Positions 1 through 12,096 of a stretch of DNA of 12,096 nt are shown here, in pieces (the first letter of the stretch is position 1; every line of letters begins with the position of its first letter). Where the stretch lies: the NCBI GenBank assembly GCA_018830745.1, contig JAHJRU010000099.1:1-12096 (forward strand), written 5' to 3'. The translations under genes and the position numbers were made by a program. Source of the stretch: Chloroflexota bacterium. Its GTDB lineage: Bacteria; Chloroflexota; Dehalococcoidia; Dehalococcoidales; JAHJRU01. The notes beneath the pieces were generated by a model. The model was not told the DNA's origin and did not search any database. It was given only the letters and a program-made list of their open reading frames with translations.

Positions 1-727
1 CCGCCGCCGCCGAAGTATTGGTAGCTACAAAAGCGCTCGATGCCAATCCACCGGCGGTGAGGGCACTGCCGGCATTAAAGCCAAACCAGCCAAACCAGAG
101 TAGACCAGCACCAAGCAACACCAGGCTAATATTGTGGGGCTCCATAGCCTCCCCATGACGAAAGCCTTTGCGGGGACCGAGCATCATGGCTAAAGCCAGG
201 GCAGAGATGCCTGCGGTGATATGAACCACTGTACCACCGGCAAAATCTAGGGCACCCAGGCTGATTAACCAGCCACCATCACCCCACACCCAATGCGCCA
301 CCGGTGCATAAACAAAGGTCAACCACAACGCCGAAAATACGAGCAGGGCGCTAAATTTAATCCGCTCTACCACCGCTCCGGTGATAAGGGCTACCGTAAT
401 TACGGCGAACATAGCCTGAAATACCATGAAAGCCAGGTGAGGTACTGTCGTCGCATAGATAGCAGAGGGCTCCTGCCCCACTCCTCTGAGGCCAAGAAAG
501 TCAAGGCCACCAATAAAACCGCCTATATCCGATCCGAAGCCCAGACTGTAGCCATAGAGCACCCAGAGCAGGCCAACCAGAGCCAGGGCAATGAAGCTCA
601 TCATCATGGTCGAGAGTACGTTTTTCCGCCTCACCATGCCGCCATAGAACAGGGCTACTCCCGGCGTCATTAGCATAACCAGCGCCGATGAAATTAAAAT
701 CCAAGCGGTGTCACCGGAACTAACCAC
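1..727 (-). CDS. amt: Ammonium transporter (Amt family), 3' end cut off by the window
   Basis: Polytopic inner-membrane channel for ammonium/ammonia. Translating the minus strand gives a typical Amt N-terminal half: [19 protein letters not shown] (first helix), then [34 protein letters not shown], and the family signature [10 protein letters not shown], which holds the conserved Asp and the first His of the pore's twin-His pair. It ends in ATNTSAAA at the window edge, so roughly 240 of about 400-450 residues are present and the second pore His lies outside. There is no good ATG. I chose GTG at 727 (VVSSGDTAW...), with GGAGAG about 15 bases upstream, which is a long spacing. The frame stays open upstream into the hisF end, so a longer form is possible. 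No signal peptide is seen, though many Amt proteins have one. It lies 55 bp behind hisF on the same strand and may share the hisHF transcript. No glnK-type regulator gene is visible in the window. Confidence 0.93.
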
Positions 728-782
728 CAGATTAAACCCACTCTCTCCGCAGACAATGTCACTGCGGAAAATAATCGCCCCC

Positions 783-1550
783 CTAAGTCCGTACCGGAAT
801 TCCCCGGTCTGAAAGGAACTGTTTCGTCTTGGCAATGGAATAGGTCCCGTAATGGAATATGCTGGCTGCCAGGACAGCATCCGCCTTGCCTTCAGTCAAT
901 ACCTGATAAAGGTCCCTCAGCGTGCCGGCGCCACCGCTGGCAATTACCGGCACGGTCACCGCTTCTGAAATAGTACGGGTGAGCTCAATATCATATCCTG
1001 CTTTATGCCCGTCAGCGTCCATGCTGGTAAGCAGAATTTCCCCCGCGCCAAGCTCCACCGCCTGTTTTGCCCAATCAACGGCATCTATCCCAGTCGCCTC
1101 CTGCCCGCTGGAGACATAGACCTCCCAGCGCGTCACCTCGCCATCTCCCACCCGCTTGGCATCTATGGCTACTACAATGCACTGGTTACCAAATTTCTCG
1201 GCTCCCTCACTTATAATGGCTGGTTTGCGCAATGCGGCAGTGTTTATTGAAACTTTATCGGCGCCAGCCTTCAACATGCGCCGCATATCCCCGATATTAC
1301 GAAGACCACCACCTACCGTCAACGGCATGAATACCCTCTCTGAGATGCGCTCTACAACGTCCACCATGGTATCACGCCCTTCCGGGGTAGCCGTGATGTC
1401 CAGAAATACCAGCTCGTCGGCGCCCTCTTTATAATAGAAGTCAGCCAGCCCCACCGGGTCACCAGCATCCTGTAAGCGGATGAAGCTCTTACCCTTTACT
1501 ACTCTGCCCCCCTTCACATCCAGGCAGGGAATAATCCTCCTGGTCAGCAT
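783..1550 (-). CDS. hisF: Imidazole glycerol phosphate synthase, cyclase subunit HisF
   Basis: Cytosolic TIM-barrel subunit of IGP synthase. It uses ammonia delivered from HisH to convert PRFAR into imidazole glycerol phosphate and AICAR in histidine biosynthesis. The protein is 255 residues, the normal family length. The start [20 protein letters not shown] carries the catalytic Asp near residue 11. IDAKR near residue 130 carries the second catalytic Asp. The phosphate-binding glycines are seen in TVGGGLRNI and ASGGAGT. The ATG at 1550 has GGAGAGG nine bases upstream. hisH lies 45 bp upstream on the same strand, so the two subunits are co-transcribed. No hisA is present between or beside them here. 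It ends with TAG at 783-785, and amt follows. Confidence 0.97.
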
Positions 1551-1595
1551 CCGCCTTTACCTCTCCGTCTGTGCATTTTCTCTATCACCTTCCGC

Positions 1596-2210
1596 CTAGC
1601 CTGCCCTGAGAGCAAACCGGATGAAATTATCATACATCTTGAGCCCGTATTCACCGCTCTTTTCCGGGTGAAACTGGGTGGCCACCAGGCTGCCTCTGGC
1701 GACGACACTGCAGAACGAGATGCCATATTCTGTCTCGCCAGCCACCAGCGAGCTATCCTCCGGCTCGGCATAGTAGCTATGCACGAAATAAAAATTAGCT
1801 TCGTCGGGTATGCCATCAAACACCGGATGAGCGGTTTTTTGTTTAACCTGGTTCCAACCCATGTGGGGTATCTTCAGCCCCCCGGGCAGTCTTCTAACTC
1901 GCCCCGGCAGGACACCAAGGCAATCATGCCAGCCACCTTCTTCGGTCCCGGTAAACAGCATTTGAAGTCCGATACAAATGCCAAGAAAGGGACGCCCGGC
2001 GGCAATGAACTGGCGGATGGGTTCAACCATACCCAGTTCCTCCAGGCTTTTCATGGTATCACCGGCGGCACCAACACCGGGCAGTATTACCGCCTGAGCG
2101 CTGAGTATATCGTCGGGGCGACTGGTTATCTTCATGCCGTAGCCCAGCTTGGCAAGCGCATTGGTCACGCTGCGCAGATTACCGGCACCATAATCAACTA
2201 CGGCAATCAT
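1596..2210 (-). CDS. hisH: Imidazole glycerol phosphate synthase, glutamine amidotransferase subunit HisH
   Basis: Class I glutaminase subunit that hydrolyses glutamine and channels ammonia to HisF. The protein is 204 residues, typical for HisH. The start MIAVVDYGAGNLRSV is the family N-terminus. PGVGAAGDTM supplies the oxyanion-strand region. FLGICIGLQMLF carries the nucleophilic Cys, and the FHPEKSG motif near residue 180 gives the His and Glu of the triad. The ATG at 2210 follows a strong ribosome binding site, GGAGAGGAG, six bases upstream. It is the first gene of a leftward unit (hisH-hisF, possibly amt). Its promoter can be seen at 2347-2319, giving a leader of about 100 bases. Confidence 0.97.
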   Translation of the reverse strand: MIAVVDYGAGNLRSVTNALAKLGYGMKITSRPDDILSAQAVILPGVGAAGDTMKSLEELGMVEPIRQFIAAGRPFLGICIGLQMLFTGTEEGGWHDCLGVLPGRVRRLPGGLKIPHMGWNQVKQKTAHPVFDGIPDEANFYFVHSYYAEPEDSSLVAGETEYGISFCSVVARGSLVATQFHPEKSGEYGLKMYDNFIRFALRAG

Positions 2211-2347: not shown

Positions 2348-2441
2348 TACCCGAATATCCTTTTTCCAGTTTCAATTATACCGCACACTTAGCTTCATCT
2401 GACCTGATATCGGAAGTTATACGATTTTCAAAAAGTGCATA

Positions 2442-2476
2442 TATACGGTAATATTATAGCATATTTTTACCGCATA
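2442..2476. repeat. Second inverted repeat with the same half-site
   Basis: TATACGGTAA (2442-2451) and TTACCGCATA (2467-2476) are inverted copies matching at nine of ten positions around a 15-base AT-rich centre. The centre reads TATAAT on the minus strand (2458-2453) and TATTAT on the plus strand (2452-2457). No well-placed -35 box was found for either, so I call it a binding-site candidate rather than a promoter. Its half-site matches the one at the hisH start point. Confidence 0.4.
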
Positions 2477-2558
2477 TGCCGCAACCGTGCCAGTCAGGAG
2501 AGGAACAACCACGCTCCTTCTAAACCCATCCAGGACATATCCAGCCAGCACCTATTAA

Positions 2559-2586
2559 TTGACTCAAACGCCAAGTCCGTGATAAC
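2559..2586 (+). promoter_or_regulatory. Probable promoter of the korDABC-hdr operon
   Basis: TTGACT (2559-2564, five of six) is followed after 16 bases by GATAAC (2581-2586, four of six). The expected start is near 2592-2594, about 55 bases before the korD ATG. The -10 match is modest, so confidence is limited. Confidence 0.45.
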
Positions 2587-2592
2587 ATCATT

Positions 2593-2620
2593 ATTTGGTG
2601 GGTTCCTCCCCACACCAAAT
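2593..2620. repeat. Palindrome or 5' hairpin in front of korD
   Basis: ATTTGGTG (2593-2600) pairs perfectly with CACCAAAT (2613-2620). After one bulged A, two more G-C pairs extend the stem. It starts at the predicted transcription start and ends 27 bases before korD. No T-run follows on either strand, so it is not an intrinsic terminator. It could be an operator or a 5' mRNA hairpin. Confidence 0.45.
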
Positions 2621-2647
2621 CACCGAGAAAGCAATACAATAACTGTT

Positions 2648-2932
2648 ATGAAGATATGGCGAAAAGCGCTGGACCTGAATAAGGTAAAGCCCAGCCGAGG
2701 TCAAATTGAAATTATGGAAGACCGGTGCAAGGGATGCCGGTTTTGCATTGAGTTCTGTCCCAAACACGTCCTGGAGGAATCCAAGGCTTTTAACGCCAAA
2801 GGATATCACCCCGCCCAGGCGGCACAGCCCGAAGATTGTGTGAACTGCGGTCTCTGCGAGATGCTTTGCCCTGAATTTGCCATAAAAGTAACGGAGGAAG
2901 AGAAGGTCAAGGAAGTTGTGAGACATGGCTAG
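2648..2932 (+). CDS. korD: 2-oxoacid:ferredoxin oxidoreductase, ferredoxin-like delta subunit
   Basis: Small 94-residue protein with two [4Fe-4S] motifs: CKGCRFCIEFCP (Cys 27, 30, 33, 37) and CVNCGLCEMLCP (Cys 64, 67, 70, 74). In the Kor/Vor family this subunit takes electrons from the TPP/Fe-S core and passes them to ferredoxin. The ATG at 2648 (MKIWRKALDL) gives a normal length but has no strong ribosome binding site. ATG 2714 is an in-frame alternative with GAGGT 12 bases upstream, which would remove 22 residues. The frame is open back to 2435, but that extension lacks any family resemblance. The stop overlaps the korA start by 8 bases, so translation is probably coupled. Confidence 0.9.
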   Translation: MKIWRKALDLNKVKPSRGQIEIMEDRCKGCRFCIEFCPKHVLEESKAFNAKGYHPAQAAQPEDCVNCGLCEMLCPEFAIKVTEEEKVKEVVRHG

Positions 2933-4076
2933 AAGAGGTCCTCTGGTGGGCGAGTTCTTTATGAACGGCGATATTGCCTGCGCCGAAGGCGGAATAAGCG
3001 CCGGGTGCCGCTTCTTTGCCGGCTATCCCATCACGCCAGCTACGGAGGTAGCCGAGCGAATGGCGGCCCGACTGCCCGAGGTCGGTGGCACTTTCATCCA
3101 GATGGAGGATGAGCTGGGCTCAATGGCGGCTATTCTGGGCGCTTCCTGGGCCGGTGTCAAGTCCATGACCTCTACATCCGGGCCCGGATTCAGCCTGATG
3201 ATGGAGAACCTTGGCCTGGGAATCATGCTGGAAACTCCCTGCGTCGTAGCTAATATCCAGCGGGCTGGACCCTCCACCGGACTGCCCACGTTAACCGGCC
3301 AAGGTGATATGATGCAGGCACGCTGGGGTTCTCATGGACCATACAGCATTATCGCTCTGTGCCCAAGCTCCCCACAGGAATGCTACTATCTGACCATCAA
3401 GGCATTTAACCTGTCTGAGCAGTATCGCCTCCCGGTGCTCGTCATGGCCGACGAGATAGTGGGCCATATGAGTGAGAAGGTGGTAATACCACCACCGGAA
3501 GACATCCCCTTAACACCAAGACGCCAACCCACTACCCCACCGGGCGAATACGTGCCCTTCCAGCCGGATGAAGACCTTGTGCCCCCTATGGCCAATGCCG
3601 GAGATGGCTATCGCTTTCATGTTACCGGTCTCACCCATGATGAGAGAGGCTACCCCGTAATGACGGCGGCGGCACAGGATAAGCTGGTAAGACGGCTGAT
3701 TGACAAGATAGAGGTAAACAAGGCGGACATTATTGAGATTGAAGAAGACGGCACAGAGGATGCCGATGTCATCGTCTGCTCCTACGGTATCTCAGCCCGT
3801 GTCTCACAATATGCCGTTGAACTCGCCCGGGGCGAAGGTATTAAAGTGGGTATGCTCCGGCTCATCACGGTCTGGCCTTTCCCCGAGGAGAGAATCAGAC
3901 AGTTAGCCAGGCAAACCAAAACCTTCATCGTCCCGGAGATAAACTCCGGGCAGATTGTGCTGGAGGTGGAGCGCTGTGCCGGGGGCAAAGCCGAGACTTT
4001 ACTCCTGCCTCACATGGGTGGCAGTGCCCATCGTCCGGAGACTATATTAGAAGCTATCAGGAGCGCAGTTAAATGA
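2925..4076 (+). CDS. korA: 2-oxoacid:ferredoxin oxidoreductase, alpha subunit
   Basis: 383-residue alpha subunit of a four-subunit 2-oxoacid:ferredoxin oxidoreductase, which oxidatively decarboxylates a 2-oxoacid to an acyl-CoA (or runs in reverse) with ferredoxin. Visible features are AGYPITPATEV (residues 32-42), the acidic QMEDELGSMAA (about 59-69), TSTSGPGFSLM (82-92) near the TPP pocket, and AGPSTGLPT with GQGDMMQARWGSHG (114-138). The C-terminal half (about 255-383) is the transketolase C-terminal-like domain, ending in PHMGGSAHRPETILEAI. The closest family is the 2-oxoglutarate type (KorA), but branched-chain or other 2-oxoacids cannot be excluded by eye. It overlaps korB by four bases (ATGA), and AAGGAAG lies upstream of the ATG. 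Confidence 0.93.
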   Translation: MARRGPLVGEFFMNGDIACAEGGISAGCRFFAGYPITPATEVAERMAARLPEVGGTFIQMEDELGSMAAILGASWAGVKSMTSTSGPGFSLMMENLGLGIMLETPCVVANIQRAGPSTGLPTLTGQGDMMQARWGSHGPYSIIALCPSSPQECYYLTIKAFNLSEQYRLPVLVMADEIVGHMSEKVVIPPPEDIPLTPRRQPTTPPGEYVPFQPDEDLVPPMANAGDGYRFHVTGLTHDERGYPVMTAAAQDKLVRRLIDKIEVNKADIIEIEEDGTEDADVIVCSYGISARVSQYAVELARGEGIKVGMLRLITVWPFPEERIRQLARQTKTFIVPEINSGQIVLEVERCAGGKAETLLLPHMGGSAHRPETILEAIRSAVK

Positions 4077-4972
4077 ATGACGACGGCTCAGAGCAGACAC
4101 AAGAGATGGACCAGTATTTGAGGGAAGACCGCATGCCCCATATCTGGTGCCCGGGCTGTGGAATAGGCTCAGTCCTCCACTGCTTTCTCAGCGCTTTAGT
4201 TAAAACCGATATAGACGCCGATAAGGTGTGTGTCGTTTCTGGCATCGGCTGTACCGGCCGCGCTGCCGGGTATGTCCATCTGGACTCATTCCATACTACG
4301 CATGGCAGAGCCATACCCTTCGCTACCGGACTAAAATTGGCTAATCCAGAACTGCAAGTGGTGGTCTTCTCGGGAGACGGCGACCTCGTAGCCATCGGGG
4401 GAAATCACCTGATTCACGCCGCCCGCAGAAATATAGATATGACCATAATATGTGTCAACAACTTCAACTATGGAATGACCGGTGGCCAGCTGGGGCCAAC
4501 TACCCCGCTGGACGCCCGTACCGCCACCTCACCCAGCGGCAATTACGAACGGCCCTTCAATATACCCTACCTGGCCGCCGCCAGTGGCGCCACCTATGTT
4601 GCCCGCTGGACATCAATGCACGTGCGCCGACTGGAGCAGACCATTAACGAAGCCCTCTTAAAAAGGGGGTTTAAGTTCATCGAAGTCATTGCCCCCTGCC
4701 CTACGGTATACGGTCGCATGAACCGACAGCCCACCGGCATGGACCAGATGAGATACTACCAGGAAAACAGCGTTATCCAGCACGGTGCCGACCCCAAGGA
4801 CGTGGATATTGACCTCAATGGCAAGATTATCGTGGGCAAGTTTATCGATATCGATCTTCCGACATACAGCGACCTTCAGCTGAGAGTTGAGCAGAAAGCC
4901 TTCGGGCCGGAAGAGTCCAAAGGCGAAGCGGTCAAGAAAAAGGCGGCTACAGCCGCTTCAAAGTCCAAATAG
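4073..4972 (+). CDS. korB: 2-oxoacid:ferredoxin oxidoreductase, TPP-binding beta subunit
   Basis: 299-residue catalytic beta subunit. The TPP/Mg motif runs from GDGD (residues 101-104) to VNNFNYGMTGGQ (about 128-139). The cluster ligands expected for this family are present: WCPGCG (Cys 26, 29), GIGCTGR (Cys 60) and APCPTVYG (Cys 209), which together hold one [4Fe-4S]. HTTHGRAIPFATGLK (74-88) is the conserved loop next to the cofactor. The last about 20 residues are a Lys/Ala-rich tail (KKKAATAASKSK) outside the core fold, of unknown role. It starts inside the korA stop, and korC begins 10 bases after its TAG. Confidence 0.95.
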   Translation: MNDDGSEQTQEMDQYLREDRMPHIWCPGCGIGSVLHCFLSALVKTDIDADKVCVVSGIGCTGRAAGYVHLDSFHTTHGRAIPFATGLKLANPELQVVVFSGDGDLVAIGGNHLIHAARRNIDMTIICVNNFNYGMTGGQLGPTTPLDARTATSPSGNYERPFNIPYLAAASGATYVARWTSMHVRRLEQTINEALLKRGFKFIEVIAPCPTVYGRMNRQPTGMDQMRYYQENSVIQHGADPKDVDIDLNGKIIVGKFIDIDLPTYSDLQLRVEQKAFGPEESKGEAVKKKAATAASKSK

Positions 4973-4982
4973 GTAATATATT

Positions 4983-5546
4983 ATGCATCGAGATGAGATA
5001 GTAATAGGTGGACTCGGCGGACAGGGCATTGTCCTGGCCGGCTATATCATGGGCAAAGCCGCCGCCCTCTTTGATAAGAAGAATTCCACTCACACCCAGG
5101 ACTATGGACCGGAAGCCAGGGGAGGCGCCTGCCGTACCCAGGTAGTCATATCGGATGACCCCATCTCATATCCCTACATTGACAACCCCTCAGTCCTGGC
5201 GGTTATGTCCCAGGGAGCCTATAATACCTACTCCCCCACCATGCGCCCGGATACCATGCTGCTCATTGACGAAGACATGGTCAAACCGGAAAAGTCAAAA
5301 GACACCCGTATTTTCACCATCCCGGCTACGCGCATAGCTCAGGAGCTTGGTCGGGCGGCAGTAGCCAATATCGTCATGCTGGGATTTATCACCGCCGTTA
5401 GCCAGGTGGTATCCAGGGACGCCATGAAACAGGCAGTGCTTGAATCCGTGCCCAAGGGCACCGAGGAACTGAATACCAAAGCCTTTGACCGCGGCTATGC
5501 CCACGGTCTGGAACAACTGACGCCAAGCGAGGGCAAGGGAAAATGA
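4983..5546 (+). CDS. korC: 2-oxoacid:ferredoxin oxidoreductase, gamma subunit
   Basis: 187-residue gamma subunit. IVIGGLGGQGIVLAG at the start (GLGGQG, residues 10-15) is the family nucleotide/CoA-side loop, followed by TQDYGPEARGGACRTQVVIS (39-57), typical of Kor/Vor gamma chains. It completes the korDABC set and is expected to form the CoA-binding part of the heterotetramer. The ribosome binding site is weak (AGGT). The last four bases (ATGA) overlap the start of the large flavoprotein gene, which ties that gene to Kor by translational coupling. Confidence 0.93.
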   Translation: MHRDEIVIGGLGGQGIVLAGYIMGKAAALFDKKNSTHTQDYGPEARGGACRTQVVISDDPISYPYIDNPSVLAVMSQGAYNTYSPTMRPDTMLLIDEDMVKPEKSKDTRIFTIPATRIAQELGRAAVANIVMLGFITAVSQVVSRDAMKQAVLESVPKGTEELNTKAFDRGYAHGLEQLTPSEGKGK

Positions 5547-8500: not shown

Positions 8501-9040
8501 CGGCAGTTTACGATTGGAGCAATTATCTTCGACCTCAGCGGCGGGACCAATAACCATCCGGATAGCTCGCTTACGAAAAATACGGAGCTGCCGCCTTTCA
8601 TATTTAAAACTATCGACGACGGGAATCATCCGCTGTTGAAATGGGAATCCGGTATGGAACCGGCATCCAGCCAGCCACCCGGCGTATTTTTGTGCGGCAC
8701 CGGGCAGGCAGCCGACAACATAACCGAGGCACTAATGCAGGGGGCAGCCGCCGCCAGCAAGGCAGCGGTCCTGATGAGCAGAGGCACCATCGAGGTAGCC
8801 CAGACTTGCGCCTCCGTTGACCAGTCGAGATGTCGCGGTTGTGGCACCTGTGAAACCGTCTGTGGATTCGGGGCTATCGCCCTGACGGAGAGGATTCCAG
8901 CCATTATGTGCGCCCAGGTGGATGAAGGGTTATGCCAGGGCTGCGGTCTATGCGTGGCTCACTGCCCGTCCGGAGCCCTCAGCCAGAACGGTTACAGCGA
9001 CCGCCAGATTTCTGCCTCCCTTAAGGCAATCCTTACCTAA
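5543..9040 (+). CDS. HdrA/GltD-like multidomain flavin and iron-sulfur fusion protein
   Basis: 1165-residue cytosolic fusion with no membrane segments. Domains in order: (1) residues 1-100, a shortened HdrA-type FAD domain (VIGGDIHG, then HPNIKVLTSASVSRIKG); (2) ferredoxin motif CTSCARCERECP (Cys 105-115); (3) about 150-230, GltD/DPYD-type Fe-S helical domain (Cys 157, 161, 200, 204, 208, 220); (4) about 250-562, GltD/NfnB-like FAD and NAD(P) domains with GAGPAG (257-262), GGGYTGID (388-395) and AAGDAARPGAP (530-540); (5) six-Cys CxxC repeat 624-640; (6) about 751-890, HdrA N-terminal domain (GIFVCDCGGSIG); (7) about 900-1085, a second degenerate HdrA FAD domain (VVGGGLSG); (8) Cys 1097-1107 and 1131-1141, two ferredoxin motifs, the first with Gly where Pro is usual. 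Known HdrA proteins bifurcate electrons at FAD, and GltD-type domains exchange hydride with NAD(P)H. I infer an NAD(P)H entry or exit module for the Hdr complex encoded downstream. No gene symbol is safe. Confidence 0.85.
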   Translation: MSGEALVIGGDIHGVQTALDLADSGIKVTLVEPSPALQVNGVNPGKSWWHNQPESLRLIPKLLKASSHPNIKVLTSASVSRIKGNRGDYRVNVVQQPRYVNVDTCTSCARCERECPVNVIPLSGKTADGHKAIHRPDFGIKSAPSTYMIDKRGIPPCTAACPAGINVQGYVALISKGKIDEALDMITDAVAFPRVLGRICTHPCEDACTRSQVDKAVSICALKRYAADNSSPRASLKRTHETNNHVESTHPRVAIIGAGPAGLTAARDLARMGHRSTVFEALPAPGGMITFGMPRFRLPREVRQADINDIVRLGIEIRTSTPIGKDLTIPELQQQGYEAILIAVGAHRNQRLGIPGEGLEGVINSIAFLQAFNLKQPVTVGKKVVVIGGGYTGIDSARTAVRLHCERVLVVDRYSKGMLTANPDEITEAEEEGVEFDYLVAPIRIVGQYGRVAGIEFRRMRLGRPDYYGRRHTIPIEGTEFLVEADTVVVATGQRPGLAFLMGDTTLTEGGKHIVVDPLTLATKIPGIFAAGDAARPGAPMINAIAEGRQAAISIDRYLRGDDPAANRSLDKVKPVEVNLDEVYIPPTERQPLPCLKYEFRIGNFEEVELGYNAGTAIKEAERCLNCATCSECMECERACELGAVEHNMTPTQVQLEVDAIAVRENLDTQLWESEVIGSSTRRSGIYLIPSSPDGELYPASAVASRIMVDLTKRHAVDKEKPRVVREAIRTDFVEAGEARSQRAVSPEEPRAGIFVCDCGGSIGEVIDLPNVVAYYQGKGNIVLSRQVEYACTDEADNEIFDLAREHGLTHVVLAACSCCNLDQICFSCSDRRVKCKSNLLSTQLRDNIYYEFVNIREHCAWVHGHQSEAATAKAKKLIGAGLARALESQPSSRKSINIERSTLVVGGGLSGLRAAADLASQGFQTTLIRKYGSYGEPEKEFESAGNKLEKELLSQGTTVLSNAELLNIAGQAGRYRASVSQNGQLRQFTIGAIIFDLSGGTNNHPDSSLTKNTELPPFIFKTIDDGNHPLLKWESGMEPASSQPPGVFLCGTGQAADNITEALMQGAAAASKAAVLMSRGTIEVAQTCASVDQSRCRGCGTCETVCGFGAIALTERIPAIMCAQVDEGLCQGCGLCVAHCPSGALSQNGYSDRQISASLKAILT

Positions 9041-9059
9041 ATTAAACGTAGCAAGTCCC

Positions 9060-9518
9060 ATGACTAAGTTAGATGAATATATTACTACTGATTTTGAACC
9101 ACGCATTGTAGGCTTTGTCTGCAACTGGAGCGCTTACAGCGGCGTGGAGATGGCAGGGATAAATAAGATGGAATACCCTGCCGGCATCAACCTTATCCGC
9201 TTAATGTGCCTCGGGCGACTGAATATCGGCTTAATCCTCAAGGCGTTCGAGTTGGGCGCTGACGGCGTGATGTTGCTGGGATGCCCGCCCGATGACTGCC
9301 ATTACGAGTGCGGGGGCGCCAAAGCGCAGGAAGTACTAGCCCAAGCAAAAGGGGTGCTGAACCTGCTGGGTATCGACCAGAATAGACTGGCTTTAATAGA
9401 AGTACCACTGGGCAGGGAAGACCTCCTGCTCAGGCAGGTATCTACCTTTGTTAAACGTATAGGCAAACCAAAGCCCAACTCCCGCCGCCGGAAGGCGAAA
9501 GTGGCCAGCCCGGTATAA
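9060..9518 (+). CDS. mvhD: MvhD/FrhD-type hydrogenase iron-sulfur (delta) subunit
   Basis: 152-residue [2Fe-2S] electron-transfer protein of the MvhD/FlpD family, which hands electrons from a hydrogenase, formate dehydrogenase or NADH module to HdrA. The family pattern is clear: IVGFVCNWSAYSGVEMAG (16-33), LIRLMCLGRLN, FELGADGVMLLGC and DDCHYECGG. The Cys are 21, 50, 75, 80 and 84. The usual CNWC is CNWS here, so Ser 24 replaces one conserved Cys. A basic tail (KPKPNSRRRKAK) closes the protein. The ATG at 9060 matches the family start. It lies 19 bp after the fusion gene and has no clear ribosome binding site. The frame is open upstream to 8922, but that part only overlaps the fusion gene. 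With no hydrogenase in view, the GltD part of the fusion is the likely electron partner. Confidence 0.9.
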   Translation: MTKLDEYITTDFEPRIVGFVCNWSAYSGVEMAGINKMEYPAGINLIRLMCLGRLNIGLILKAFELGADGVMLLGCPPDDCHYECGGAKAQEVLAQAKGVLNLLGIDQNRLALIEVPLGREDLLLRQVSTFVKRIGKPKPNSRRRKAKVASPV

Positions 9519-9530
9519 GAAGGATTTATA

Positions 9531-10676
9531 ATGACCAGAATCAAGCGGATAATCGCCGATACCAGCGCTTACTCCTGCCTCGATTGCGGCAAGTGCACCG
9601 TCACCTGCCCTATATCCCACTATGACCCTGACTACTCACCGAGAAAGCTGGTTCACCGCGCCCTCAGCGGCGATGGCACCGAACTGTTGAAAAACGGGCA
9701 GCTCTGGTCCTGTATCACCTGCTCCATGTGCGAGGAAAAGTGCCAGTCCGGCGTCCAGTATACCGATTTAATCCGTTCTCTCAGGATAGAGGCGCACGAT
9801 TCAGGGGAAGCGGGCGAATGCACCCACGGCGGCGCACTTCAATCCCTGATGCACATCATGACGGCTAATTCCCTCAGACAGAACCGGCTGGGCTGGGTAG
9901 ATAAGACCCTGAAAACAGCCACCAAGGGCGAAACACTGTATTTCGTTGGCTGTCAGCCGTACTTCGATGTGCTGTTCTCCGATATCGGGGTAAAAGGTAT
10001 AGGCACAGCCAGGGGAGCGGTGAAGCTCCTCAACCAGCTGGATATTACGCCGGCGCTAATGCCGAACGAACGCTGCTGCGGACATGACCTGCTCTGGGCA
10101 GGAGATATGAAGAACTTCGCCAAGCTGGCCAAGCACAACCTGAAAGAGATAAGCAAGACTAAAGCCAGGCGGGTGGTCACTACCTGTCCGGAGGGATATT
10201 TAACCCTGAAAGAAGAATACCCGCGCCACTTCGGGAGCCTGGATTTCGAGGTAATCCACATATCCCAACTGCTGGCCGAAGCGGTGACTGAGGGCAAACT
10301 GAAATTCCGCCGCACGCCCAAGAAGGTCACCTACCACGACCCCTGCCGGCTGGGCCGGTTCTCCGGCATTTATGCCGAACCACGCGCCATAATAGACGCC
10401 ATTCCGGGGGTGGAGCTGGTGGAGATGTACCACAACCGCACCAGCGCCCTCTGCTGCGGCACCCAGGCCTGGATAAACTGCGGCACCATCAACAAGCAGA
10501 TTCAGGTGGAACGCCTGCGTGAGGCTAAGGCTACCGGAGCTGAGATAATGCTGACGTCCTGCCCCAAGTGCCAGATACACCTGAAATGCGCCATGCATGA
10601 CCAGAATCTGGGGGAGGAGCTGCAAATAGAAATAGAGGACTTGACCAGTTTTGCCGCCAGAGCGTTGATTGGGTAG
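9531..10676 (+). CDS. hdrD: HdrC-HdrB fusion (HdrD-like) heterodisulfide reductase subunit
   Basis: 381-residue soluble protein. The HdrC part (1-about 90) has two [4Fe-4S] motifs: [12 protein letters not shown] (Cys 16-26) and [11 protein letters not shown] (Cys 61-71). The HdrB part (about 134-381) has two CCG domains: Cys 141, CC 182-183 and CPEG (219-222), then Cys 272, CC 308-309 and CPKC (344-347). In methanogen HdrB these Cys build the paired noncubane clusters that reduce a disulfide. Here the last Cys of the first module is Gly 222. CoM-S-S-CoB is not expected in a bacterium, so the substrate is unknown. The symbol is by architecture only (HdrC then HdrB in one chain, as in HdrD). 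AGAAGGA lies six bases before the ATG. The TAG stop overlaps the ribosome binding site of hdrA. Confidence 0.9.
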
Positions 10677-10687
10677 GAGGAATCGAT

Positions 10688-12096
10688 ATGAGCGATGAAA
10701 ATGTGAGAATAGGCGTGTTTGTCTGCGATTGCGGCAAGAATATTGCCGGCTTTGTGGACACGGAAGCGGTCAGAAAGTACGCCGAGGGTCTGGACGATGT
10801 GGTCGTCTCGGTGGGAAACCAGTATACCTGCTCTGACCCCGGACAGGAAGATATAAAGAAGCATATTCGGGAAAACGACCTCAACCGCATCGTGGTGGCT
10901 TCATGCTCGCCCCGCCTTCATGAGCCTACCTTCCGCACCTGCACCGCCGAGGTCGGCCTTAACCCCTATCTGCTGGAAATGGCTAACATCAGGGAGCAGT
11001 GCAGCTGGGTTTATTTTATTAATGATACGGCGACCACCGAGAAAGCCAGGGAGCTCGTGGGAATGGCGGTTGCCCGGGCGCGCCGGCTCCAGCCACAGCA
11101 TGAAAATGAGTTTCCCGTCACCGATGCCGCCCTGGTAATCGGCGGTGGAATCGCCGGTATTCAGGCATCCCTTGACCTGGCAAATTCCGGGCATACGGTC
11201 TACCTGGTGGAAAGGCAGCCCTCCATCGGCGGGATGATGGCACAACTGGACAAGACCTTTCCCACTATGGACTGCTCTATATGAATACTCGGTCCTAAGA
11301 TGACGGATGTCGGTCGACATCCCCGAATCAAGCTCCTGACCCTGAGCGAAGTCGAAGAGGTCACCGGATACGTCGGTAACTTCAACGTAAAAGTGCGTAA
11401 AAAGGCGCGCTACGTTGATGAAAACGACTGCATCGCCTGCGGCGAATGCGTTGACGTATGCCCGGAAATAAAATCGGACGAGTACCAGCAGGGCTTTGCC
11501 CACCGCAAGGCGATTTATATTCCCTTCCCCCAGTCCATCCCCTCCTCCTACACGATAAATATGGACGACTGCCTGGGCAATAATCCCATCGCCTGCGGCA
11601 AGTGCCTGGAAAAATGCGATAAGAAATGCATTGACTTCGATATGCAGGATGAGATTATCGACCTCAATGTGGGCACCATCATCGTGGCTACCGGACTGGA
11701 CGTCTATGACCCCACCGAGCTGGATGAATACGGTTACACCAAGTTCGAAAATGTGGTTACCAGTCTGGAGTTCGAGCGCCTTATCTGCGCCGGCGGACCG
11801 ACTAATGGCCACTTCGTCAGGCCCGGCGACGGCACAACGCCGAAGCGCATCGGCTTCATCCAGTGCGTCGGGTCACGGTCGGCCAAGCACGGACATCCCT
11901 ACTGCAGCAACATATGCTGCATGAATACCATAAAGGACAGCCTGCTGTTAAAAGAGCATTACCCTGATACTGAAATCATTGTTTTCTACATCGATATACG
12001 CGCCTTCGGCAAGGGTTTCGAGGACCTGTTCAATCGCAGCAAGAAGATGGGAGTACGCTACCTGCGCGGCATACCGGGCTATATCGAAGAAGACCC
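10688..12096 (+). CDS. hdrA: Heterodisulfide reductase subunit HdrA, selenocysteine-containing, 3' end outside the window
   Basis: Flavin subunit of the Hdr complex, the known site of flavin-based electron bifurcation in HdrABC systems. I read it through the in-frame TGA at 11282-11284 as Sec 199, giving 469 codons before the window ends (HdrA is usually about 650 residues or more). Order: HdrA N-terminal domain ([27 protein letters not shown]); FAD Rossmann motif GGGIAG (152-157); [19 protein letters not shown] with CxxU at 196-199; ILGPKM; the [20 protein letters not shown] block; ferredoxin [12 protein letters not shown] (248-258); second Cys set 295, 303, 306, 310, 314; and QCVGSRS followed by CSNICCM. 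Translation after the TGA stays fully open and matches the family, so this is not a pseudogene. AGGAGG lies seven bases before the ATG. Residues of about 109-116 coincide with an adapter-like sequence and should not be trusted. Confidence 0.93.
11021..11042 (+). other. Match to Illumina P5 adapter inside hdrA, probable assembly artefact
   Basis: AATGATACGGCGACCACCGA followed by GA is identical to the first 22 bases of the Illumina P5 oligonucleotide. It translates as NDTATTE within [11 protein letters not shown], a string often met in contaminated metagenome proteins. The AT-rich bases just before it (from about 11010) may belong to the artefact too. The reading frame is unbroken, and the segment has the same length as in the paralogous module of the fusion protein (AWV-8 residues-TAKA), so it seems to replace native bases rather than insert extra ones. 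Confidence 0.85.
11282..11284 (+). other. In-frame TGA read as selenocysteine (Sec 199 of HdrA)
   Basis: The TGA falls exactly where HdrA proteins carry the second Cys of the CxxC before ILxPKM (here C-S-I-U-I-L-G-P-K-M). HdrA is an established selenoprotein family at this site in some methanogens and anaerobic bacteria. The downstream hairpin supports recoding. Confidence 0.9.
11305..11322 (+). promoter_or_regulatory. Bacterial SECIS hairpin for the HdrA Sec codon
   Basis: GGATGTC (11305-11311), loop GGTC (11312-11315) and GACATCC (11316-11322) form a perfect 7-bp stem. The GGUC apical loop is the same as in the well-studied E. coli fdhF SECIS. The loop begins 27 bases after the TGA, within the spacing known for bacterial SECIS elements but longer than in fdhF. 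It should bind SelB and direct Sec insertion. It also codes for HdrA residues 206-211. Confidence 0.85.

What the first reader, a model, noticed from the sequence alone, without database searches (positions are those of the whole stretch)
11282..11322. HdrA is a selenoprotein with a textbook bacterial SECIS
Seen: TGA in frame, family-matching translation on both sides, and a perfect 7-bp stem with a GGTC loop starting 20 bases after it. Known: HdrA carries Cys or Sec at this CxxC/U position. Inference: the FAD-proximal redox site uses Sec, perhaps to tune potential or rate. Standard gene calling would give a truncated 198-residue protein and a separate fragment starting at ATG 11300.
Basis: partly seen in the sequence, partly recalled or inferred. 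Interest (0 to 1): 0.82.

Follow-up and report, generated by a model that had tools for sequence, protein, structure and literature searches.

The report
Selenocysteine-containing HdrA electron-transfer protein gene
A stop codon inside a bacterial energy-metabolism gene is very probably read as the rare amino acid selenocysteine, guided by a small RNA hairpin just after it; this is a clear new case of a selenoprotein family that was already known.

Summary
TGA 11282-11284 is codon 199 of an HdrA2-type gene (10688 to contig end), followed 20 nt later by GGATGTC-GGTC-GACATCC (11305-11322). By folding energy the hairpin is unremarkable (z -0.73); comparison decides. Of 82 genes (window plus 81 orthologues), 67 have TGA here and 15 Cys. 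The inner six pairs form in 67 of 67 TGA genes and 0 of 15 Cys genes. One pair, T:A or C:G, changes at least 11 times on a tree. Codons 207, 208, 209 and 211 show the strongest codon constraint of 419 scored, beside 199 itself. The 72%-complete genome has a second UGA-at-Sec-site gene, FdhA, and half of SelD at a contig edge. SelA, SelB and tRNA-Sec were not found in it; relatives with the same TGA gene have them. Sec-HdrA of bacteria has been in print since 2006 (PMC1794560; PMC5029168 counts 103), so this is a new member of a known kind. An apparent Sec-to-Cys reversion in Chloroflexota, SelA kept in five of ten genomes, is a modest extra. The Sec's chemical role is untested.

The parts
10688..12096 (+). 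hdrA2-type gene, first 469 codons; runs off the contig end. In the 73 of 82 rows whose end is on the locus, 597-667 codons follow the Sec/Cys codon
   Evidence: NF040770 HdrA2 741 bits over residues 7-468; 5odc HdrA E 3.8e-178; lengths; C-terminal MvhD-like part in 58 of 58 Sec and 15 of 15 Cys loci with >1 kb downstream
11282..11284 (+). UGA Sec codon, residue 199, in D-C-S-I-U-I-L-G-P-K-M
   Evidence: TGA in 67 and a Cys codon in 15 of 82 rows, window included
11305..11311 (+). 5' arm of bSECIS stem, GGATGTC
11312..11315 (+). apical loop GGTC
   Evidence: GGTC in 67 of 67 TGA rows, 1 of 15 Cys rows
11316..11322 (+). 3' arm of bSECIS stem, GACATCC
9531..10676 (+). fused HdrC-HdrB-like gene (4Fe-4S plus two CCG stretches), directly upstream
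   Evidence: Pfam CCG, Fer4 types; homologue just upstream in 46 of 67 Sec and 10 of 15 Cys loci
9060..9518 (+). MvhD/FlpD-like gene (no in-frame TGA; start inferred inside ORF 8922-9518)
   Evidence: Pfam FlpD 126.5 bits
5543..9040 (+). large FAD/NAD(P)-binding plus HdrA-like fusion (HdrL-like by my reading), 1165 aa
   Evidence: Pfam Pyr_redox_2, Fer4_20, Fer4; HdrA-like stretches
2435..5546 (+). four genes of a 2-oxoacid:ferredoxin oxidoreductase (ferredoxin-like, alpha, beta, gamma)
   Evidence: Pfam Fer4, POR_N, PFOR_II, TPP_enzyme_C, POR; substrate not tested

Best explanation
The gene encodes a selenocysteine-containing HdrA2-type subunit of a probable electron-bifurcating HdrABC-MvhD complex in a Chloroflexota bacterium close to Dehalococcoidia (host placed by the nearest named relatives of the gene). 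During translation SelB with Sec-tRNA binds the GGUC-loop hairpin 20 nt behind UGA 199 and Sec is inserted in place of termination (shown: codon, hairpin, covariation; inferred: SelB binding and insertion). The product has a CxxU motif about 50 residues behind the FAD-binding glycine motif. Most likely the Sec works beside the bifurcating flavin, as a redox-active or flavin-tuning residue that Cys can replace (inferred). The complex probably links the neighbouring 2-oxoacid:ferredoxin oxidoreductase to an MvhD/HdrCB branch (inferred from gene order).
For: TGA aligned to Cys in homologues: 67 TGA and 15 Cys of 82 rows; the Sec rows span 11 named phyla by record title, 8 rows unnamed. Inner stem in 67 of 67 against 0 of 15; GGT at G209 in 67 of 67 against 23% of Gly codons elsewhere in the same genes; CGA in 41 of 67 at R210 against 6% of Arg codons elsewhere. 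Covarying pair TA 41, CG 24, TG 2, at least 11 changes on a tree of the 67 Sec rows built with residues 199 and 208-213 masked. Codon constraint at 207, 208, 209, 211 is the highest of 419 codons beside 199. Second Sec-site UGA in the genome's FdhA, aligned to a non-standard residue X in 9t1s_L. SelD C-terminal half on C248; no SelU found. G023 and G035 have SelA, SelB, SelD and tRNA-Sec; G006 has SelA, SelB, SelD. SelA over cut-off in 13 of 15 further Sec-HdrA genomes. bSECIS model in PMC13188914 (passages: G in the first two loop positions, UGA-to-loop 16-37 nt for most): here GG and 27 nt.
Against: No SelA, SelB over cut-off or tRNA-Sec found in the window's own genome; it is 72% complete and the Rfam look scored 96 of 141 candidates. 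SelD alone is not proof: the abstract of PMC5029168 reports orphan SelD without any known selenium trait, and the Se-cofactor trait was not tested here. The hairpin is not unusually stable. SelA was not found in 2 of the 15 Sec-HdrA genomes. Not seen in any call: expression or mass-spectrometry data. FAD proximity and function of the Sec are untested.
Confidence: 0.97

Rival explanations
1. The TGA is a sequencing or assembly error of a Cys codon, or a true stop in a broken gene.
For: The genome is fragmented and its SelA, SelB and tRNA-Sec were not found. A plausible case of this kind was seen elsewhere: G005 has TGA at a ferredoxin Cys with only a weak fold behind it.
Against: The same TGA stands in 67 of 82 rows from separate records, with open frame on both sides, and the constrained hairpin is found in the TGA rows only.
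Confidence: 0.01
2. The hairpin's conservation reflects protein constraint on D-V/A-G-R-H, or recent spread of one gene copy, not a SECIS.
For: Cys rows keep G-R-H or G-K-H too. Some phyla mix on the tree (Zixiibacteriota needs 4 changes).
Against: Cys rows use other codons for these residues. Elsewhere in the same Sec genes codons vary (median conditional identity 0.44) while these four are fixed. Recent spread would fix the whole gene, not five codons; pairing is kept through at least 11 changes.
Confidence: 0.01
3. UGA is decoded by near-cognate read-through or a reassigned code rather than as Sec.
For: SelA, SelB and tRNA-Sec not seen in the own genome.
Against: UGA ends two other genes of the window (POR alpha and gamma). 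The two in-frame UGA followed up in this genome both sit at the known Sec site, in HdrA and FdhA. A SelD half is present.
Confidence: 0.01

Closest known systems
Sec-containing HdrA of bacteria and methanogens (NF040770, CxxU; PMC1794560, PMC2702500, PMC5029168, PMC13188914)
   Same: Same protein family with Sec at CxxU; bacterial SECIS inside the coding region behind the UGA
   Different: Host is Chloroflexota; next to 2-oxoacid:ferredoxin oxidoreductase and HdrL-like genes rather than the frhA/frhD/glpC setting described in PMC1794560
HdrA of solved methanogen complexes (5odc, 8rvu, 7bkb)
   Same: CxxC at the aligned site (DCSICIL, DCSMCIL, DCSQCIL)
   Different: Printed as Cys in those chains; the window gene has TGA, and its orthologues carry a C-terminal MvhD-like part
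Sec-containing FdhA
   Same: In-frame UGA at the known Sec site; present in the same genome
   Different: Sec there binds Mo or W (recalled); different sequence behind the UGA

Membership tests
bacterial selenoprotein (UGA + bSECIS) | In-frame UGA aligned to Cys in homologues | tested here: met
   67 TGA, 15 Cys of 82 rows
bacterial selenoprotein (UGA + bSECIS) | Hairpin with G in the first two positions of a 3-9 nt loop, loop 16-37 nt from UGA (rule from passages of PMC13188914) | tested here: met
   GGTC loop, 27 nt from UGA; conserved pairing. Fold energy alone not significant
bacterial selenoprotein (UGA + bSECIS) | Sec machinery in the genome | tested here: inconclusive
   SelD half found; SelA, SelB over cut-off and tRNA-Sec not found at 72% completeness; all four in relatives G023 and G035
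bacterial selenoprotein (UGA + bSECIS) | Sec in the protein | not testable with these tools
   needs mass spectrometry or selenium labelling
HdrA2 (NF040770) | Curated full-length score 1100 bits | tested here: inconclusive
   741 bits over profile positions 1-458 of 777; the gene is cut by the contig end
HdrA2 (NF040770) | C-terminal MvhD-like part (feature of M. acetivorans HdrA2 per PMC6019823, passages) | tested here: inconclusive
   off the contig in the window; present in 73 of 73 orthologue loci with >1 kb downstream
HdrA2 (NF040770) | HdrB/HdrC-like and MvhD-like genes beside it | tested here: met
   Pfam CCG, Fer4 types, FlpD
electron-bifurcating Hdr complex | Flavin-based bifurcation | not testable with these tools
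   needs enzyme assay

The most novel reading that the evidence does not exclude
The CxxU pair is an actual electron relay beside the bifurcating FAD: the missing step between the MvhD-type [2Fe-2S] cluster (ElpC in the paper) and the flavin, which a 2025 structure paper calls an unknown mechanism over about 25 A (PMC12350162, passages). Ten Chloroflexota HdrA appear to have gone from Sec back to Cys, five of them in genomes that still have SelA, giving natural Sec/Cys pairs to test it.
Probability: 0.08. Interest if true: 0.75.

Novelty: new member of a known kind. Interest (0 to 1): 0.28.

Why it matters
It corrects a gene that standard annotation splits in two, and shows that an almost letter-identical bSECIS runs through Sec-HdrA genes of 11 named phyla, a ready signature for finding such genes. 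The Sec and Cys versions in related Chloroflexota give matched pairs for asking what selenium buys in flavin-based electron bifurcation. The kind itself is established, so the surprise is small.

Tried and rejected
Folding energy as evidence: not significant. Rfam on the window: nothing over gathering scores. tRNA-Sec in the own genome by Rfam (best 40.7 bits, gathering score 47; 96 of 141 candidates scored), by a DNA query from G023 (no positive control in that call) and by an anticodon-arm pattern that did find G023, G016 and G035: none. RF01852 is not specific near its gathering score (over it in 5 of 14 control genomes), so only hits near 70 bits, or ARAGORN tRNA-Sec calls, were counted. 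An outer four-pair extension of the stem in the window's fold is not conserved among Sec rows and was dropped. The first-pass table missed minus-strand loci such as L027, mended; one search returned nothing because of a wrong tblastn option. Residue labels printed (D208 to H212) are one too high; one search gives the right numbers, 207-211. Structure prediction was not run, since its output lists no coordinates from which a Sec-FAD distance could be read. A SelD that serves only selenouridine was considered and is unlikely (no SelU in G000).

The 82-row set is the window, G023 (L027) and the best 80 of 289 confirmed loci; the other 209 were not returned or examined, so the 67:15 ratio holds for close orthologues only.

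Full report
What is there. The window is the whole of contig C76 of a 1.53-Mb, 273-contig genome estimated 72% complete. The nearest named relatives of the gene are Chloroflexota MAGs, first a Dehalococcoidia bacterium (isolate S120, 82% identity). Reading TGA as Sec, the frame from 10688 gives 469 codons to the contig end with one TGA, codon 199, in MDCSIUILGPKM. The product matches NF040770 HdrA2 over its whole available length (741 bits) and methanogen HdrA of known structure (5odc, E 3.8e-178), printed with Cys at the aligned residue.

The hairpin. GGATGTC GGTC GACATCC lies at 11305-11322, 20 nt after the TGA. Its energy is not exceptional (z -0.73, 51 of 200 shuffles as good), so energy alone would not have justified the claim.

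Comparative test. I took the window, G023 and the best 80 of 289 orthologous loci of the genome scan, 82 rows in all, and read the aligned codon: TGA in 67, TGT in 9, TGC in 6. In 67 of 67 TGA rows the inner six pairs form and the loop is GGTC; in 0 of 15 Cys rows do all six form (2 to 5 do), and 1 of 15 has GGTC. The seventh, outermost pair forms in 49 of 67. The pair at offsets 28/35 from the TGA is TA in 41, CG in 24 and TG in 2: Val GTC goes with Arg CGA in 41 and CGG in 2, Ala GCC with Arg CGG in 24. On a tree of the Sec rows with these columns masked it changes at least 11 times. In the TGA rows Asp is GAT, Gly GGT and His CAT in 67 of 67, against 43%, 23% and 38% elsewhere in the same genes. 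Of 419 codons scored for identity among rows with the same amino acid, only 199, 207, 208, 209 and 211 reach 1.0; the median is 0.44. In the Cys rows 207, 208, 209 and 211 score 0.44, 0.29, 0.34 and 0.52. This is RNA-level selection tied to the UGA.

Sec machinery. Own genome: SelD over cut-off as a C-terminal half starting at base 2 of contig C248 (133 bits); no SelA; no SelB over cut-off; no tRNA-Sec; no SelU. It also has FdhA on C273 with one TGA, at the residue that is non-standard (X) in 9t1s_L. Relatives with the TGA HdrA: G023 has SelA, SelB, SelD and tRNA-Sec; G035 has SelA, SelD, SelB and tRNA-Sec; G006 has SelA, SelB and SelD, with only what looks like the 3' part of a tRNA-Sec near a contig end. 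SelD of G006, G023, G035 and G040 itself carries one TGA. The missing genes in G000 are best explained by incompleteness; orphan SelD is known from other bacteria (abstract of PMC5029168), so SelD alone would not settle it.

Evolution. On a quick maximum-likelihood tree of 89 rows (82 plus 7 paralogues as outgroup) the Sec/Cys label needs 2 changes. Five Bacteroidota Cys rows lie outside a 77-row group (SH-aLRT 94, not starred). Ten Chloroflexota Cys rows lie inside it, in a starred 11-row group with Sec row L083, which reads as one Sec-to-Cys reversion. SelA is over cut-off in 13 of 15 Sec-row genomes tested, 5 of 10 Chloroflexota Cys-row genomes (a sixth has a sub-cut-off end fragment) and 1 of 5 Bacteroidota Cys-row genomes; so the reversion does not simply follow loss of SelA. 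SelB, SelD and tRNA-Sec were not tested in those 30 genomes. The 2006 survey's table gives no Sec-to-Cys event for HdrA (passages). I did not run a clade test.

Surroundings and likely role. Upstream lie a fused HdrC-HdrB-like gene, an MvhD-like gene, an HdrL-like fusion and four subunits of a 2-oxoacid:ferredoxin oxidoreductase (names beyond the Pfam hits are my reading). An HdrCB homologue sits just upstream in 46 of 67 Sec and 10 of 15 Cys loci; a homologue of a 2-oxoacid oxidoreductase gene is within the locus in 10 and 5 (flanks are 4 kb or less, 5 Sec loci have under 1 kb upstream, so these are lower bounds). The likely function is a flavin-based electron-bifurcating or confurcating Hdr complex. 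The Sec follows the FAD-binding glycine motif; the Pfam Pyr_redox_2 match spans residues 149-199. From memory, this is where glutathione-reductase-type flavoproteins hold their redox disulfide next to the flavin, which suggests but does not show FAD proximity.

Known or new. Sec-HdrA in bacteria was described in 2006 (PMC1794560, passages: 16 HdrA selenoproteins), in Desulfobacterium autotrophicum in 2009 (PMC2702500, passages), counted as 103 selenoproteins in 42 organisms in a survey of more than 5200 (PMC5029168, abstract and passages), and listed as CxxU under NF040770 in a 2026 review (PMC13188914, passages). My searches and the passages read (three of those papers deal with Chloroflexi) showed no text on Sec-HdrA in Chloroflexota; that is no proof that none exists. 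Verdict: real, well supported, a new member of a known kind.

Noticed in passing
L172 (G000:C273) 10-1872: Second likely selenoprotein gene of the same genome: FdhA with UGA at the Sec site, at a contig start; the stretch behind it folds (not tested against shuffles).
   Followed up: yes
L181 (G022:C43) and L180 (G040:C171): Paralogous, about 46% identical HdrA with TGA at the same CxxU site but a different stem-loop sequence. G040 has SelA and SelD; G022 has SelB but no SelA, and no SelD over cut-off.
   Followed up: partly
L179 (G005:C63): HdrA paralogue with TGA where a ferredoxin cluster Cys is expected and only a weak fold behind it; SelA, SelB and SelD not over cut-off in that genome, though RF01852 has a 52-bit hit there: perhaps a sequencing error or a decaying gene.
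   Followed up: partly
L162 (G006:C73, about 296): 3' part of a tRNA-Sec whose 5' part does not match; near the contig end, probably an assembly break.
   Followed up: partly
L074, L076, L077, L087, L098: Cys-HdrA in Chloroflexota genomes that keep SelA; L076 still has the GGTC loop.
   Followed up: partly
window 2-2210, minus strand: Open frames that look like an ammonium transporter, HisF and HisH by eye (recalled); no search was run on them.
   Followed up: no
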